Shown here: positions 1 to 3,287 of the stretch, one piece after another
How positions within the stretch are numbered: the first letter of the stretch is position 1
Layout: each line of letters opens with the position of its first letter
Source of the DNA: Bacteroidales bacterium
Lineage (GTDB): Bacteria; Bacteroidota; Bacteroidia; Bacteroidales; F082
Direction of reading: 5' to 3'
DNA length: 34,522 nucleotides
NCBI GenBank assembly: GCA_030683155.1
Contig: JAUXMV010000060.1
Coordinates: forward strand, 1 to 34,522
Made by a program: the position numbers and the translations under genes
Notes under the pieces: generated by a model
Database searches by the model: none
Told to the model about the DNA's origin: nothing
Seen by the model: only the letters and a program-made list of their open reading frames with translations

Positions 1-65
1 CCGAAAAATTTCGGAATGAACCTGGGACCTACTGTGCCGAAAGCTTTCGGCAGAGTCAGTTGCTC
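1..65 (-). pseudogene. tRNA remnant A (partial, at window edge)
   Basis: The tRNA-derived blocks are 17-34 (T-arm 5' side, variable region and 3' anticodon stem) and 53-65 (GAGC of the D-stem plus the 5' anticodon stem). Between them sits the palindrome TGCCGAAAGCTTTCGGCA at 35-52. A second palindromic block, CCGAAAAATTTCGG, occupies 1-14 and replaces the T-loop/T-stem 3' bases. It is cut by the window edge. The remnant has no acceptor stem and cannot fold into a tRNA. Confidence 0.85.
35..52. repeat. 18-nt perfect palindrome, copy 1
   Basis: TGCCGAAAGCTTTCGGCA is its own reverse complement. Identical copies lie at 171-188 and 292-309. All three sit at the same position inside tRNA remnants. 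I saw no further copy in the rest of the window. Confidence 0.95.
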
Positions 66-126
66 CCTTCTCACTCTATGTCAAAAAAAAAGACTGCTTA
101 TGAAACAGTAATTTCTTCAAGTGAAA

Positions 127-201
127 GACCCACCTTCCGAAAAATTTCGGAATGAACCTGGGACCTACTGTGCCGAAAGCTTTCGGCAGAGTCAGTTGCT
201 C
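127..201 (-). pseudogene. tRNA remnant B with two palindromic replacements
   Basis: The tRNA-derived blocks are 153-170 and 189-201. The anticodon-loop bases are replaced by TGCCGAAAGCTTTCGGCA (171-188). The T-arm bases AGTCCT (minus sense) are replaced by an 18-nt imperfect palindrome at 135-152, plus-strand TTCCGAAAAATTTCGGAA. Both replacements share the core CCGAAA-NN-TTTCGG. The remnant is followed in the minus sense by a degraded terminator block at about 83-110. Confidence 0.85.
135..152. repeat. 18-nt imperfect palindrome in T-arm
   Basis: TTCCGAAAAATTTCGGAA has 8-bp arms (TTCCGAAA/TTTCGGAA) around an AA centre. It interrupts the T-arm of remnant B. The same element, truncated by the window edge, begins at base 1. 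It shares the CCGAAA...TTTCGG core with the anticodon-loop palindrome. Confidence 0.9.
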
Positions 202-218
202 CCTTTTCACTCTATGTC

Positions 219-250
219 AAAAAAAAAGACTGCTATAAAACAGTCTATTT
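219..250 (-). terminator. Repeated terminator-like hairpin in array
   Basis: This copy of the tRNA terminator block (AGACTG, 8-nt loop, CAGTCT, flanked by an A-tract) lies behind remnant C in the minus sense. The stem is intact. It would stop any transcript that had read through the first terminator. Confidence 0.6.
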
Positions 251-257
251 TGTGTAG

Positions 258-322
258 TGGGCCCACCAGGACTTGAACCTGGGACCTACTGTGCCGAAAG
301 CTTTCGGCAGAGTCAGTTGCTC
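258..322 (-). pseudogene. tRNA remnant C with palindrome in anticodon loop
   Basis: The acceptor 3' strand and complete T-arm (258-291) are identical to the functional tRNA. The palindrome TGCCGAAAGCTTTCGGCA (292-309) stands in place of five bases ATAAT of the anticodon loop and stem, and 310-322 matches the D-stem 3' strand and 5' anticodon stem. The acceptor 5' strand and D-loop are absent. Only one palindrome is present here, so the T-arm palindrome of copies A and B was probably a separate event. Confidence 0.88.
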
Positions 323-339
323 CCTTTTCATTCTATGTC

Positions 340-372
340 AAAAAAAAAGACTGCTATAAAACAGTCTTTTTT
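340..372 (-). terminator. Intrinsic terminator of the tRNA
   Basis: Read on the minus strand just after the tRNA: stem AAGACTG (362-368 side) with CAGTCTT (347-353 side), an 8-nt loop, then an uninterrupted T-run from the A-tract at 340-348. The same hairpin recurs at 219-250 and, degraded, at 83-110 inside the array. Confidence 0.75.
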
Positions 373-378
373 GTTTAG

Positions 379-452
379 TGGGCCCACCAGGACTTGAACC
401 TGGGACCTACTGATTATGAGTCAGTTGCTCTAACCAACTGAGCTATAGGCCC
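379..452 (-). tRNA. tRNA-Met (CAT anticodon)
   Basis: A full 74-nt cloverleaf reads on the minus strand. The acceptor stem is GGGCCTA/TGGGCCC with discriminator A. The D-arm is GCTC/GAGC with a 9-nt loop containing GG. The anticodon stem is ACTGA/TCAGT around loop CTCATAA. A 5-nt variable region and a T-arm CCAGG-TTCAAGT-CCTGG follow. The CCA end is not encoded; the DNA continues CTA after the discriminator. With anticodon CAT the gene could be elongator Met or the lysidine-modified Ile2 (AUA) tRNA. It does not have the usual initiator layout, because the 1-72 pair is a normal G-C. A terminator follows, and downstream of it lie partial copies of the same gene. Confidence 0.93.
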
Positions 453-491
453 GCTATTAGGAATTTTTAACAAGAAAAAACGTAGAACTCT

Positions 492-522
492 TTTGTTTTA
501 CAGCGGCAAAGTTACAACTTTG
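492..522 (+). promoter_or_regulatory. Possible promoter of the HAD gene
   Basis: TTTG at 492-495 is followed after 19 nt by CAACTTTG at 515-522, one mismatch from TAnnTTTG. It overlaps the divergent tRNA promoter, so the two transcripts may share or compete for this site. Confidence 0.35.
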
Positions 523-539
523 TATCGTTATTAAACAAA
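507..539 (-). promoter_or_regulatory. Predicted promoter of the tRNA
   Basis: On the minus strand the box TAACTTTG (514-507) matches the Bacteroidota -7 consensus TAnnTTTG. TTTG at 539-536 lies about 21 nt upstream, fitting the -33 element. Transcription would start roughly 50 nt before the tRNA 5' end. The assignment rests on the motif alone. Confidence 0.5.
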
Positions 540-556
540 CAAAAAAATCATTTCGT

Positions 557-1213
557 ATGAAATCAAGTACAAATATTCGCAATATCATCTTTGACTTCGG
601 TGGAGTTATACTTGATATAGATCCACAGCAAACCATTAATACACTTAAGAATCAAGGGGTTAAAAATGTTGAAGTTTTTAGCACACCTGAATTTCAAGAG
701 CAGGTAATGAATAAGTTTGAGCGGGGCATTCTCACTCCCGAGCTGTTTCGTGAAAAGGTAAGGTTCTTTCTTGATTCAAAAATGTCAGATCAGCATATTG
801 ATGATGCATGGAACGCACTTTTGCTTGATATCCCAAAAGAGCGCATCAAGGTGCTTGAACAGGTTAAGCAAAATTATAACACTTTTCTGTTGAGTAATTC
901 AAATGAGATTCATTATGATGTGTATGTGAGAGACCTGCAACTTCGTTTCGGATACCGGGAGTTTGATCAGCTGTTTCATAAAGCCTATTTCTCATTCGAT
1001 TTGCATCTGAGCAAGCCCAACCCAGAAATATTTGAGTTTGTTATGAACCAGCATAAAATGGTTGCGGAAGAGACTTTATTTATCGATGATACCCTCGAAC
1101 ACATTGAAGCTGCGCTTCGGCTTGGAATTCACTGCTATCAGCTAGTAAAGCCTGAAAGAGTGCGTGATCTGTTTACAGACGGCATTCTGAAGGAAGATCT
1201 GAAGATTCTTTAG
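557..1213 (+). CDS. HAD-superfamily phosphatase (YihX-like)
   Basis: This is a cytosolic haloacid-dehalogenase-type hydrolase of 218 residues, the usual size for the group with a small helical cap. Motif I is DFGGVILD at residues 13-20 with Asp13 as nucleophile. Motif II is LLSNSNE (111-117), the motif III lysine is Lys153 in SKPNPE, and motif IV is the acidic pair Asp177-Asp178 in FIDDT. Glycine at the usual +2 Asp position of motif I is also found in YihX-type sugar-phosphate phosphatases (E. coli YihX, alpha-glucose-1-phosphatase). The substrate is therefore likely a small sugar phosphate, but this is inference. The ATG at 557 has no Shine-Dalgarno sequence. The 3' end overlaps the convergent dusB gene by 41 bp. 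Confidence 0.85.
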   Translation: MKSSTNIRNIIFDFGGVILDIDPQQTINTLKNQGVKNVEVFSTPEFQEQVMNKFERGILTPELFREKVRFFLDSKMSDQHIDDAWNALLLDIPKERIKVLEQVKQNYNTFLLSNSNEIHYDVYVRDLQLRFGYREFDQLFHKAYFSFDLHLSKPNPEIFEFVMNQHKMVAEETLFIDDTLEHIEAALRLGIHCYQLVKPERVRDLFTDGILKEDLKIL

Positions 1214-2222
1214 ACTGTTCATCGTGCTGTTTGATCGGCATTACGCCATCATAAAGCTCGGCAATTTCATCTAAGATTGTGAGCAATTCCAGGTATTGGT
1301 CTGTCTGCATGATGCGTATGCGGAATGGTTTGAAATTTGGAAAAGCCTTGAAATAGTCTCCCCAATGTTTACGCATTTCCATCATGGCCTGCCGCTCGCC
1401 CTTCCACTCCACTGATTTGCTCAGATGAATCTTGCTTATGCGGATTCGTTCGTGGATATCGGGCAATTCGGGTGAGATTCCGGTTTCAAGGTATTGCTTC
1501 ACCTCTCTGAAAATCCAAGGATTTCCATAGCTTCCGCGTGCAATCATTAGTCCATCCACACCAAAATTATCACGAAAATATTTCGCTGAAGGCCCATCAA
1601 TAACATCTCCGTTGCCAAAGACCGGGATTATCATTCGAGGGTTTTGTTTCACTTTACCAATGAGTGTCCAGTCTGCCGGAACACTTGACCTTGTAGTGCG
1701 CAATCTTCCATGAATTGTCAGCGCCTGAATACCAACATCTTGCAGACGCTCTGCAATTTCAACGATGTCTTTTCTATCCTCATCGTAGCCAAGCCTTGTT
1801 TTCACTGTCACAGGCAGCTTCACAGCATTTACCACTGCCTGGGTCATGGCAACCATTTTTGGAATGTCGTTCATGATGCCTGAGCCGGCCCCTTTGGACG
1901 CCACTTTTTTTACCGGACAACCATAATTGATGTCAATAATATCAGGGCTTGCCCTTTCGGCATATTCTGCCGCTTTGATCATAGAATCGATATCGTGGCC
2001 GAAAATCTGAATGCCGATTGGTCTTTCAAATTCATTAAAGTCCAGTTTCTTTACACTTTTTGCAGCATCGCGTATGAGGCCCTCGGAGGAAATGAACTCG
2101 GTATACATGATGTCGGCGCCAAACATTTTGCATACATAACGAAACGGTGGGTCGCTCACATCTTCCATTGGAGCCAGCAGAATCGGAAAATCACCTATAT
2201 TTAAATTGCCAATTTTGATCAC
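1173..2222 (-). CDS. dusB: tRNA-dihydrouridine synthase, DusB type
   Basis: This FMN-dependent TIM-barrel enzyme reduces specific uridines in the D-loop of tRNAs with NADPH. The N-terminal LLAPMEDVSDPPF is the family signature. The catalytic cysteine is Cys102 in NYGCPVKKV, VKTR near residue 142 carries the conserved FMN-binding Lys, and LTIHGR gives the conserved His. WIFREV near 240 is shared with E. coli DusB. At 349 residues it is slightly longer than average, with a polar C-terminal tail that overlaps the end of the HAD gene. The start is GTG (2222-2220). No ATG lies nearby upstream in frame, and the next Met (residue 19) would remove the first beta strand. A TAnnTTTG box at 2300-2293 sits upstream. 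Confidence 0.93.
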   Translation of the reverse strand: MIKIGNLNIGDFPILLAPMEDVSDPPFRYVCKMFGADIMYTEFISSEGLIRDAAKSVKKLDFNEFERPIGIQIFGHDIDSMIKAAEYAERASPDIIDINYGCPVKKVASKGAGSGIMNDIPKMVAMTQAVVNAVKLPVTVKTRLGYDEDRKDIVEIAERLQDVGIQALTIHGRLRTTRSSVPADWTLIGKVKQNPRMIIPVFGNGDVIDGPSAKYFRDNFGVDGLMIARGSYGNPWIFREVKQYLETGISPELPDIHERIRISKIHLSKSVEWKGERQAMMEMRKHWGDYFKAFPNFKPFRIRIMQTDQYLELLTILDEIAELYDGVMPIKQHDEQSKESSDLPSECRL

Positions 2223-2290
2223 TTATACAGTTTTTGTTTGCATTTAGTTCTTTATCTCGTCAATGTCTGTAATAATCAACTCAAACAGGC

Positions 2291-2311
2291 GGCAAAAATA
2301 CTATTTTTGCC
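2291..2311. promoter_or_regulatory. Palindromic back-to-back promoter between dusB and CPBP gene
   Basis: The inverted repeat GGCAAAAATA-C-TATTTTTGCC has 10-bp arms and a 1-nt centre. Each arm contains TATTTTTG, a match to the -7 element TAnnTTTG, one pointing at dusB (2300-2293) and one at the CPBP protease (2302-2309). No convincing -33 TTTG was found for either direction. It could also act as an operator or hairpin. Confidence 0.5.
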
Positions 2312-2336
2312 TTTAAACAGATTATCAGACAGAAAT

Positions 2337-3287
2337 ATGATTCCCCGCCCACTATTCAAAGACACTTCCTCAGGATTTCAACTATTTACTTTTCTTTTTC
2401 TGATGCTTTTTGGCATCCTGCTTGGCACACTTGGAGGATTGGTCATTTTAAAACTATTTATGGGCATTGGATTCGCTGAGGCTGGTAATTTACTCAAAGA
2501 GAGCATTGACCTTAATCCTGCAAGGATACTGCAGATAACCAGCCAGTTTGGTTTATTTATTCTCCCACCTTTAGCTTTCAGTTGGCTGTTTATGGAAAAG
2601 CCAATTTATTCATTGGGCTTTTCAAAAATCGCAGATAAAAAAGTGCTTTTGGCCGGTTTGATACTGATGTTTGCGGGGCTGCCTTTCATTCATTTTCTTG
2701 CAGAAATGAATGAGTCGATACAATTACCGGCTTCTTTATCCAACCTTGAAGCATGGATGAAAGACAAAGAAGAAGAGGCCAAACGGCTTACCGACATTTT
2801 TCTGGGTGTTTCCAGCATTTCCGGATTGATGATCAATCTGCTGATGATTGCTGTAATTCCGGCTATTGGAGAGGAACTTGTTTTCAGATCGGTTTTGCAG
2901 CCTGTTCTGGGAAAACTTTTTAAAAATATCCATTTTGGAATCGTGATCTCAGCGCTCGTTTTCAGCCTTATGCATTTCCAGTTTTATGGCTTGATACCAC
3001 GCTTTGTTCTGGGCCTTTTTATGGGTTACTTTTATTACTGGTCTGGTTCAATCTGGGTGCCGATTTTGATGCATTTCATTAACAATGGCGCCGCTGTGAT
3101 TGTTTACTACTTGTTTTTTACCGGCCAATCGAGTGTTCCGCTTGAAGAATTTGGCGCCATGGAAAATATACCGCTGCTTATAGTAAGTATTGTTGCTACT
3201 TTGGCGCTGCTCTATGCCGGATTCAGATGGAAATCAGGCATAGAAAAAGACATACTGAATAAGCAAGCACAGGAAGAGAGAATCTGA
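2337..3287 (+). CDS. CPBP-family intramembrane metalloprotease
   Basis: This is a polytopic membrane protein of 316 residues from the ATG at 2337, in the CPBP (CAAX protease and bacteriocin-processing) family, a set of Rce1-like intramembrane proteases. The family motifs are present in order: EELVFR (EExxxR) in the middle, FSLMHF (FxxxH) about 35 residues later, and a final MHFINN (HxxxN). Hydrophobic segments fill most of the rest, beginning with FTFLFLMLFGILLG near the N-terminus. The frame is open upstream to 2238, but the TAnnTTTG box at 2302-2309 lies inside that extension, so I chose 2337. The substrate is unknown; family members act in peptide maturation or self-immunity. The C-terminal tail is short and charged. 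Confidence 0.88.
   Translation: MIPRPLFKDTSSGFQLFTFLFLMLFGILLGTLGGLVILKLFMGIGFAEAGNLLKESIDLNPARILQITSQFGLFILPPLAFSWLFMEKPIYSLGFSKIADKKVLLAGLILMFAGLPFIHFLAEMNESIQLPASLSNLEAWMKDKEEEAKRLTDIFLGVSSISGLMINLLMIAVIPAIGEELVFRSVLQPVLGKLFKNIHFGIVISALVFSLMHFQFYGLIPRFVLGLFMGYFYYWSGSIWVPILMHFINNGAAVIVYYLFFTGQSSVPLEEFGAMENIPLLIVSIVATLALLYAGFRWKSGIEKDILNKQAQEERI

What the first reader, a model, noticed from the sequence alone, without database searches (positions are those of the whole stretch)
1..452. Tandem tRNA 3'-half remnants whose anticodon loop is replaced by an 18-nt palindrome
Behind an intact tRNA(CAT), at least three partial copies are stacked at 121-136 bp spacing. Each keeps the tRNA from the D-stem 3' strand onward plus the terminator hairpin. 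In all three, five anticodon-loop/stem bases are exactly replaced by TGCCGAAAGCTTTCGGCA. Simple decay would not give the same clean replacement in every copy, so a palindrome was inserted once and the unit was then amplified, or the palindrome is targeted to the loop. Transcripts reading past the tRNA would carry extended hairpins flanked by terminators. The array could be a miniature mobile element, a decoy tRNA-like RNA or a recombination product. The array leaves the left edge, so its full size is unknown.
Basis: partly seen in the sequence, partly recalled or inferred. Interest (0 to 1): 0.75.

Follow-up and report, generated by a model that had tools for sequence, protein, structure and literature searches.

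The report
tRNA-invading nuclease elements with palindrome scars
The odd tRNA fragments look like multiplied leftovers of a tiny selfish element, a DNA-cutting enzyme gene that lodges beside a tRNA gene and leaves a palindrome where a tRNA loop should be; relatives sit beside tRNA genes in many Bacteroidota, and our searches found no published description.

Summary
Behind an intact tRNA-Met(CAT) (378-452, minus) lie three remnants in which ATAAT of the anticodon arm is replaced by TGCCGAAAGCTTTCGGCA. The array runs on into contig C109, where it holds two GIY-YIG nuclease genes.

Relatives explain it. Small GIY-YIG genes sit beside tRNA genes (57 of 80 named loci; 1 of 30 loci of another GIY-YIG clade). 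On the far side of the gene lies a tRNA remnant with a hairpin: CCGAWAGCTWTCGG in the window's clade, other hairpins in other clades. Mirror forms occur (tRNA-ORF-remnant, remnant-ORF-tRNA). Palindromes sit mostly in anticodon, T, D or variable loops. ORF pairs tested show purifying selection; the same tRNA site is empty in two congeners; a one-contig genome carries six tandem 356-bp units.

Best reading: a tRNA-gene homing element, like fungal mitochondrial mORFs and phage SegB, with the palindrome at the junction or cut site; the window holds ORF-less tandem derivatives. No cleavage or mobility was shown. The palindrome is also dispersed in genomes where no close ORF was found, so what moves it is open.

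The parts
378..452 (-). intact tRNA-Met(CAT), the occupied target gene
   Evidence: ARAGORN; Rfam tRNA 76.4 bits; same gene empty in two congeners
340..375 (-). terminator-like hairpin with T-run after the tRNA
   Evidence: inverted repeat I6, 93% complementary; sequence
257..322 (-). remnant 1: tRNA from the 3' part of the D-arm onward, anticodon loop replaced, T-arm and acceptor strand intact
   Evidence: 257-291 is 100% identical to the tRNA 3' part
292..309 (.). anticodon-loop palindrome TGCCGAAAGCTTTCGGCA, copy 1, in place of ATAAT
219..251 (-). terminator-like hairpin of unit 1
   Evidence: (I1)
127..201 (-). remnant 2: as remnant 1 but T-loop also replaced by a palindrome
171..188 (.). 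anticodon-loop palindrome, copy 2
135..152 (.).
83..117 (-). terminator-like hairpin region of unit 2
   Evidence: arm 83-99
1..65 (-). remnant 3, cut by the contig end, continues in contig C109
35..52 (.). anticodon-loop palindrome, copy 3
1..16 (.). T-loop palindrome, cut by the contig end

Best explanation
The array is a decayed and amplified copy of a minimal mobile element that lives in tRNA genes. The element is a single-domain GIY-YIG endonuclease gene plus a copy of one end of its target tRNA gene (3' part with terminator in form A, promoter with 5' part in form B) and a palindrome. Proposed working: the nuclease cuts the uninterrupted tRNA gene in or next to a loop; the break is repaired from an element-bearing copy, using the tRNA half next to the intact gene on one side and the remnant's tRNA half on the other as homology arms. 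The invaded tRNA is rebuilt with the element's own copy, the displaced original end stays behind as a remnant, and the palindrome marks, and would block recutting of, the junction in the remnant. Recutting of the rebuilt tRNA and recombination between repeats gives tandem arrays; copies that lose the ORF, as in the window, can still be amplified. Shown here: anatomy, recurrence, association with tRNA, clade-specific hairpins, empty sites, tandem arrays, purifying selection on the ORF. Inferred: cleavage, homing, the blocking role of the palindrome.
For: Two GIY-YIG ORFs inside the array beyond the window edge (Pfam PF01541). Of 80 loci kept from 218 relatives in the genome scan, 57 have a tRNA within 700 bp upstream or 350 bp downstream (45 of the 53 with enough flank), against 1 of 30 for another GIY-YIG clade (p about 2e-11). 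A CCG..CGG hairpin next to the ORF in 61 of 80, against 14 of 400 windows in the same loci's flanks and 3 of 30 control loci. Mirror forms A and B. Congeners: at this tRNA-Met, G001 and G002 empty; G004 two tandem units; G006, G007, G008 an ORF, broken or incomplete; G003 ORF-less units; G005 not readable by the script. Six tandem 356-bp units plus a truncated ORF behind another tRNA-Met(CAT) in a one-contig genome. Tree of 129 of 156 ORFs: the exact core occurs with 55 of 94 rows of one clade and 0 of the other 35, which carry other hairpins or none; isotype needs 15 changes against a minimum of 39 in 300 shuffles, hairpin type 15 against 23. dN/dS 0.06-0.33 in the 15 of 19 chosen pairs that could be computed. 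Independent biochemistry in PMC13096335 (passages): phage SegB, a GIY-YIG homing endonuclease, cuts inside tRNA genes, its motif RAWTSGAAC is the reverse complement of a tRNA T-loop sequence, and it drives tandem amplification of a tRNA-segB unit.
Against: No cleavage, excision or transfer was observed. The rebuilt tRNA should itself be cut by the nuclease, a paradox the model leaves open. The core palindrome also occurs in 32 of 142 phylum genomes without a close ORF (E below 1e-20 as proxy), for example 10 copies in G202, which had no match at E 1e-3. The loop used follows the protein tree only weakly (18 changes, shuffle minimum 19) and the A/B side not beyond shuffles (9, minimum 9). 19 of 80 loci show no such hairpin in the region searched. 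Y1-type transposases, alternative movers of palindromes, were found in 8 of 8 genomes searched. No match to the ORF in the phage or plasmid collections, so no vehicle for transfer was seen.
Confidence: 0.6

Rival explanations
1. The palindrome is its own mobile unit, a REP-like element that is placed into loops of stem-loops, by the GIY-YIG protein or by a Y1/RAYT-type transposase; tRNA remnants are merely tolerant, hairpin-rich targets.
For: Dispersed cores in 38 of 148 phylum genomes and 0-32 per genome in 20 chosen genomes; flanks of 40 dispersed sites are more complementary than reshuffled flanks (mean 6.85 against 5.63, sd 0.29, 1 of 500 shuffles as high; 9 of 40 above the 95% null level), for example inside a terminator loop in L254; one remnant (L179) has palindromes in D, anticodon and T loops; Y1_Tnp in 8 of 8 genomes.
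Against: 31 of the 40 dispersed sites are not above the null level; some of the 40 share flanks and one (L198) is itself a tRNA-Lys remnant; palindromes keep the same five-base replacement in tRNA-Met remnants of many taxa, which looks inherited with the element; hairpin type follows nuclease clade even within one genome.
Confidence: 0.25
2. Plain decay: duplicated tRNA ends became pseudogenes and happened to carry a common repeat; the neighbouring GIY-YIG gene is an unrelated hitchhiker.
For: Remnants vary, many are truncated, and ORF-less arrays exist.
Against: tRNA adjacency and hairpin enrichment against controls, purifying selection in the tested ORF pairs, the same anatomy in many taxa and for several tRNA isotypes.
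Confidence: 0.08
3. The remnants act as RNA, as decoys or guides that mimic tRNA.
For: The first remnant folds as single-stranded DNA with the palindrome as an extended anticodon arm and an intact T-arm.
Against: Terminator-like hairpins lie between tRNA and remnants; remnants 2 and 3 lack the T-loop; no tRNA call by ARAGORN or Rfam for the remnants.
Confidence: 0.04
4. The array is an assembly artefact.
For: It spans a contig break, and the join rests on a 140-bp repeat.
Against: The same anatomy inside long contigs, in a one-contig genome and in named isolate assemblies such as L119, L162 and L165.
Confidence: 0.03

Closest known systems
Fungal mitochondrial mobile ORFs (mORFs; Allomyces atp6 element, Glomus atp6/atp9/cox2/nad3)
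   Same: An endonuclease ORF (LAGLIDADG, or GIY-YIG in atp9) inserted with a replacement 3' end for the target gene, the native end displaced downstream (PMC3630166, passages).
   Different: There protein genes in mitochondria; here tRNA genes in bacteria, a mirror form with the 5' end, and a palindrome in the displaced part. Palindromes were not among the terms looked up in that paper.
SegB, GIY-YIG homing endonuclease of T-even phages
   Same: GIY-YIG nuclease that cuts in tRNA genes, lies beside tRNAs and drives tandem amplification of a tRNA-nuclease unit (PMC13096335, passages).
   Different: Phage-encoded; the amplified unit is a whole tRNA plus segB; a search of that paper for 'palindrom' gave no hit. 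Its protein was not compared with ours.
REP elements and RAYT (Y1) transposases
   Same: Short dispersed palindromes in bacterial genomes.
   Different: The core here is a perfect palindrome without the GTAG or CGTC head described in PMC3733652 (passages) and in the window's clade it accompanies a GIY-YIG gene.
Genomic islands and phages integrated in tRNA genes by tyrosine integrases (recalled)
   Same: Intact tRNA at one end, partial tRNA at the other.
   Different: No integrase gene: ORFs of 40 aa or more overlapping C109:1-1400 show only the two GIY-YIG genes, overlapping short frames and a long flanking gene; the repeat is interrupted by a palindrome.

Membership tests
GIY-YIG nuclease superfamily | GIY-YIG catalytic domain with conserved Y, G, R and E | tested here: met
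   PF01541 36.0 bits against cut-off 22.6; Y6, Y17, G19, R28, E67 among the invariant columns of the 10-protein alignment
GIY-YIG nuclease superfamily | DNA cleavage | not testable with these tools
   no experiment; profile search reaches only weak PDB matches, UPF0213 1zg2 (2e-3) and SLX1 7cq2 (9e-3)
Homing mobile ORF (mORF type) | ORF between a rebuilt target gene and a displaced native end | tested here: met
Homing mobile ORF (mORF type) | occupied and empty alleles of one locus | tested here: met
   G001 and G002 empty, G003, G004, G006, G007, G008 and G000 occupied; between species, not between strains
Homing mobile ORF (mORF type) | nuclease cuts the empty allele and not the occupied one | not testable with these tools
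   needs biochemistry
REP/RAYT | GTAG- or CGTC-headed imperfect palindrome | tested here: not met
   sequence of the palindromes against the description in PMC3733652 (passages)
REP/RAYT | Y1 transposase next to the repeat | tested here: not met
   Y1_Tnp occurs in the genome (7 matches) but none of those listed is on C80 or C109; other dispersed palindromes were not checked for this
tRNA-integrated island (tyrosine integrase) | integrase gene in the element | tested here: not met
   ORF list of C109:1-1400
Group I intron with endonuclease | intron RNA fold | tested here: not met
   no group I intron match in Rfam scans of window 1-3000 and C109:1-1500 at E up to 1

The most novel reading that the evidence does not exclude
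Single-domain GIY-YIG nucleases of Bacteroidota are the machines of a hairpin-loop-targeting mobile palindrome: they recognise stem-loops of tRNA genes and place a clade-specific palindrome in the loop while copying themselves, a GIY-YIG counterpart of the REP/RAYT system that uses tRNA genes as its home.
Probability: 0.25. Interest if true: 0.88.

Novelty: new variant of a known kind. Interest (0 to 1): 0.7.

Why it matters
tRNA genes are the classic landing sites of bacterial islands and phages, normally by integrases. This family would be an integrase-free, roughly 350-bp element that invades tRNA genes with a single small nuclease and rebuilds them, the bacterial twin of fungal mitochondrial mORFs. 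It gives a likely function to many small GIY-YIG genes that are annotated only by domain, suggests why some tRNA loci carry tandem tRNA-like repeats, and makes testable what nuclease-driven amplification of tRNA loci does in cells rather than phages.

Tried and rejected
Rejected: decoy RNA, group I intron, integrase island, assembly artefact and pure decay (see rivals and membership test). Tried without result: the palindrome strings as literal search terms found no paper; phage and plasmid collections gave no match to the ORF; the T-loop/anticodon choice does not follow the protein tree clearly; the A/B side does not beat shuffles. Truncation of remnants at the palindrome's dyad centre was considered as a sign of cleavage there: 42 distinct anticodon arms are complete within one mismatch and 4 are not, but three of the four are congeners that may share one event, so nothing is built on it. 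Covariation of the palindrome arms is partly circular, because palindromes were chosen for pairing. Structure prediction was not run. Two first translations were in the wrong frame and were replaced by the ORF list.

Rows dropped: for the tree 129 of 156 ORFs were kept; fragments under 75 aa, identical rows and 12 duplicates or fragments named in the script were left out. In the control set the ORF place was taken as nominal for all 30 loci, which is off for shortened loci such as L272 and L290; the direct tRNA scan of 29 of those 30 found a tRNA anywhere in 2. One automatic tRNA assignment (L084) maps to remnants that ARAGORN had called tRNAs.

Full report
What is in the window. The window is the start of contig C80 of an unnamed draft genome, inferred to be Bacteroidota from its relatives. 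A tRNA-Met(CAT) lies at 378-452 on the minus strand. Behind it, at 136- and 121-bp spacing, are three tRNA remnants. In each, ATAAT of the anticodon loop and stem is replaced by TGCCGAAAGCTTTCGGCA. In the two distal copies AGTCCT of the T-loop is replaced as well, by a sister palindrome. The remnants are not recognised as tRNAs.

Beyond the edge. Window 1-140 is the exact reverse complement of C109:1-140. Continuing there, the array has four more complete anticodon palindromes, one truncated one, and two ORFs of 98 aa, 96% identical to each other. They are GIY-YIG nucleases (PF01541). The stop codon of each ORF lies in the anticodon stem of the following remnant. Thus the window shows the ORF-less part of an array whose other part carries the gene.

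Relatives. At a second tRNA-Met of the same genome the arrangement repeats: intact tRNA, terminator, a different GIY-YIG gene, and a remnant whose anticodon loop holds another hairpin. Homologs occur in 46 of 100 relatives. In the collection of species genomes 218 relatives were found and the best 80 returned, nearly all labelled as Bacteroidota or groups within it, with three Ignavibacteriales records and one each labelled Chlorobiota and Rickettsiales. 57 of the 80 have a tRNA close by, 45 of the 53 that have enough flank, against 1 of 30 in a control clade of GIY-YIG genes from related genomes. Targets include Met, Leu, Asn and Phe in this clade and Val, Asn, Met and Pro in others.

Two mirror forms. 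In form A the order is intact tRNA, terminator, ORF, short tRNA stretch, palindrome, rest of the tRNA. In form B it is promoter copy, tRNA 5' part with a palindrome in the D-loop, ORF, second promoter copy, intact tRNA (for example L163, L172, L152). Of 156 ORFs and fragments, with redundancy, 94 were labelled A, 14 B and 48 neither; a few of these labels rest on remnants miscalled as tRNAs.

The palindrome. Near the ORF a CCG..CGG hairpin is found in 61 of 80 loci, against 14 of 400 flank windows and 3 of 30 control loci. Ninety-eight palindromes could be mapped into tRNAs: 45 in the anticodon loop, 20 in the T-loop, 18 in the D-loop, 7 in the variable loop, 8 mixed or elsewhere. Against random placement this is a moderate enrichment for loops (91 of 98, random maximum 88; 48 of 53 distinct contexts, random maximum 48). 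The core CCGAWAGCTWTCGG goes with one protein clade (55 of 94 rows exact, 0 of 35 outside), and other clades have other hairpins, even in one genome, as in G041 and G032. Outer pairs covary, but the set was chosen for pairing.

The palindrome elsewhere. The core occurs in 38 of 148 genomes of the phylum. All 6 genomes with a close ORF (E below 1e-20, my proxy) have it, and 32 of the other 142 (p 2e-4). Away from tRNAs it sits sometimes in the apex of other stem-loops (9 of 40 above the null level; mean above 499 of 500 shuffles). So it is also a dispersed repeat, and what moves it is not settled; Y1 transposases are present in 8 of 8 genomes tested.

Dynamics. At the orthologous tRNA-Met two congeners are empty, one has two tandem units, one has ORF-less units, three have an ORF that is broken or incomplete, one could not be read. 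A one-contig genome has six units at 356-bp spacing behind a tRNA-Met(CAT) of the type seen at C63. dN/dS is 0.06-0.33 in 15 computable of 19 chosen pairs.

Mechanism. The best-supported reading is homing: cut of an empty tRNA gene, repair from an occupied copy with tRNA halves as homology arms, rebuilding of the tRNA, and displacement of the native end, with the palindrome at the junction. Anatomy and recurrence are shown; cutting, transfer and the blocking role of the palindrome are inferred. Two published systems work alike: fungal mitochondrial mORFs, which carry a replacement gene end and displace the native one (PMC3630166, passages), and phage SegB, which cuts in tRNA genes and amplifies a tRNA-segB unit (PMC13096335, passages). 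SegB's motif RAWTSGAAC reads GTTCSAWTY on the other strand, a T-loop sequence; the tRNA-Leu of L135 and L168 has it, and there the palindrome replaces ATT inside it (the comparison is mine). T4 Seg proteins are known for intronless homing (PMC1564403, passages).

Literature. Nine searches of the held open-access library listed no paper that by title or abstract describes GIY-YIG elements in bacterial tRNA genes with palindromes. Passages only were seen of five papers. Subscription journals and preprints were not searchable.

Verdict. This is a new variant of a known kind, homing mobile ORFs, with an unexplained and interesting palindrome component.

Noticed in passing
L035 (C45:9800-11800) and L271, L274, L290, L294: Another, UPF0213-like GIY-YIG clade is not linked to tRNAs, but some copies are flanked on both sides by the same hairpin repeat (for example ATGCCGAA-cttgt-TTCGGCAT; 4 clear cases of 30 loci). 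It may be a second pairing of GIY-YIG gene and palindrome.
   Followed up: partly
C27:51127-51144 and C58:3628-3645 (L026, L027); also L043, L045, L047, L049: The window's exact 18-bp palindrome recurs in another intergenic repeat (flanks TTTTGGCAA..CCAAAACCATCTGCCC) in this genome and in congener G003.
   Followed up: partly
L254: In genome G202 a TCCCGATAGCTATCGGGA copy sits in the loop of what looks like a rho-independent terminator (AAAAGCATTC..GAATGCTTTTTT).
   Followed up: no
L074, L079, L081, L087, L088, L098: In the tRNA-Asn clade the nuclease frame runs into the remnant, so the protein C-terminus (AQLVRVP..) is encoded by the D-arm and hairpin of the tRNA remnant.
   Followed up: no
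L270 (G163:C44): Three tandem units at 403 bp in which a TCCCGATAGCTATCGGGA copy lies inside the GIY-YIG reading frame region, apparently interrupting the gene.
   Followed up: no
L179: A tRNA-Leu remnant with palindromes in D, anticodon and T loops at once.
   Followed up: no
window about 560-2221: Next to the tRNA lie, by eye only, a HAD-like hydrolase gene and, on the minus strand, what looks like a tRNA-dihydrouridine synthase gene; the first stays beside this tRNA in most congeners.
   Followed up: no
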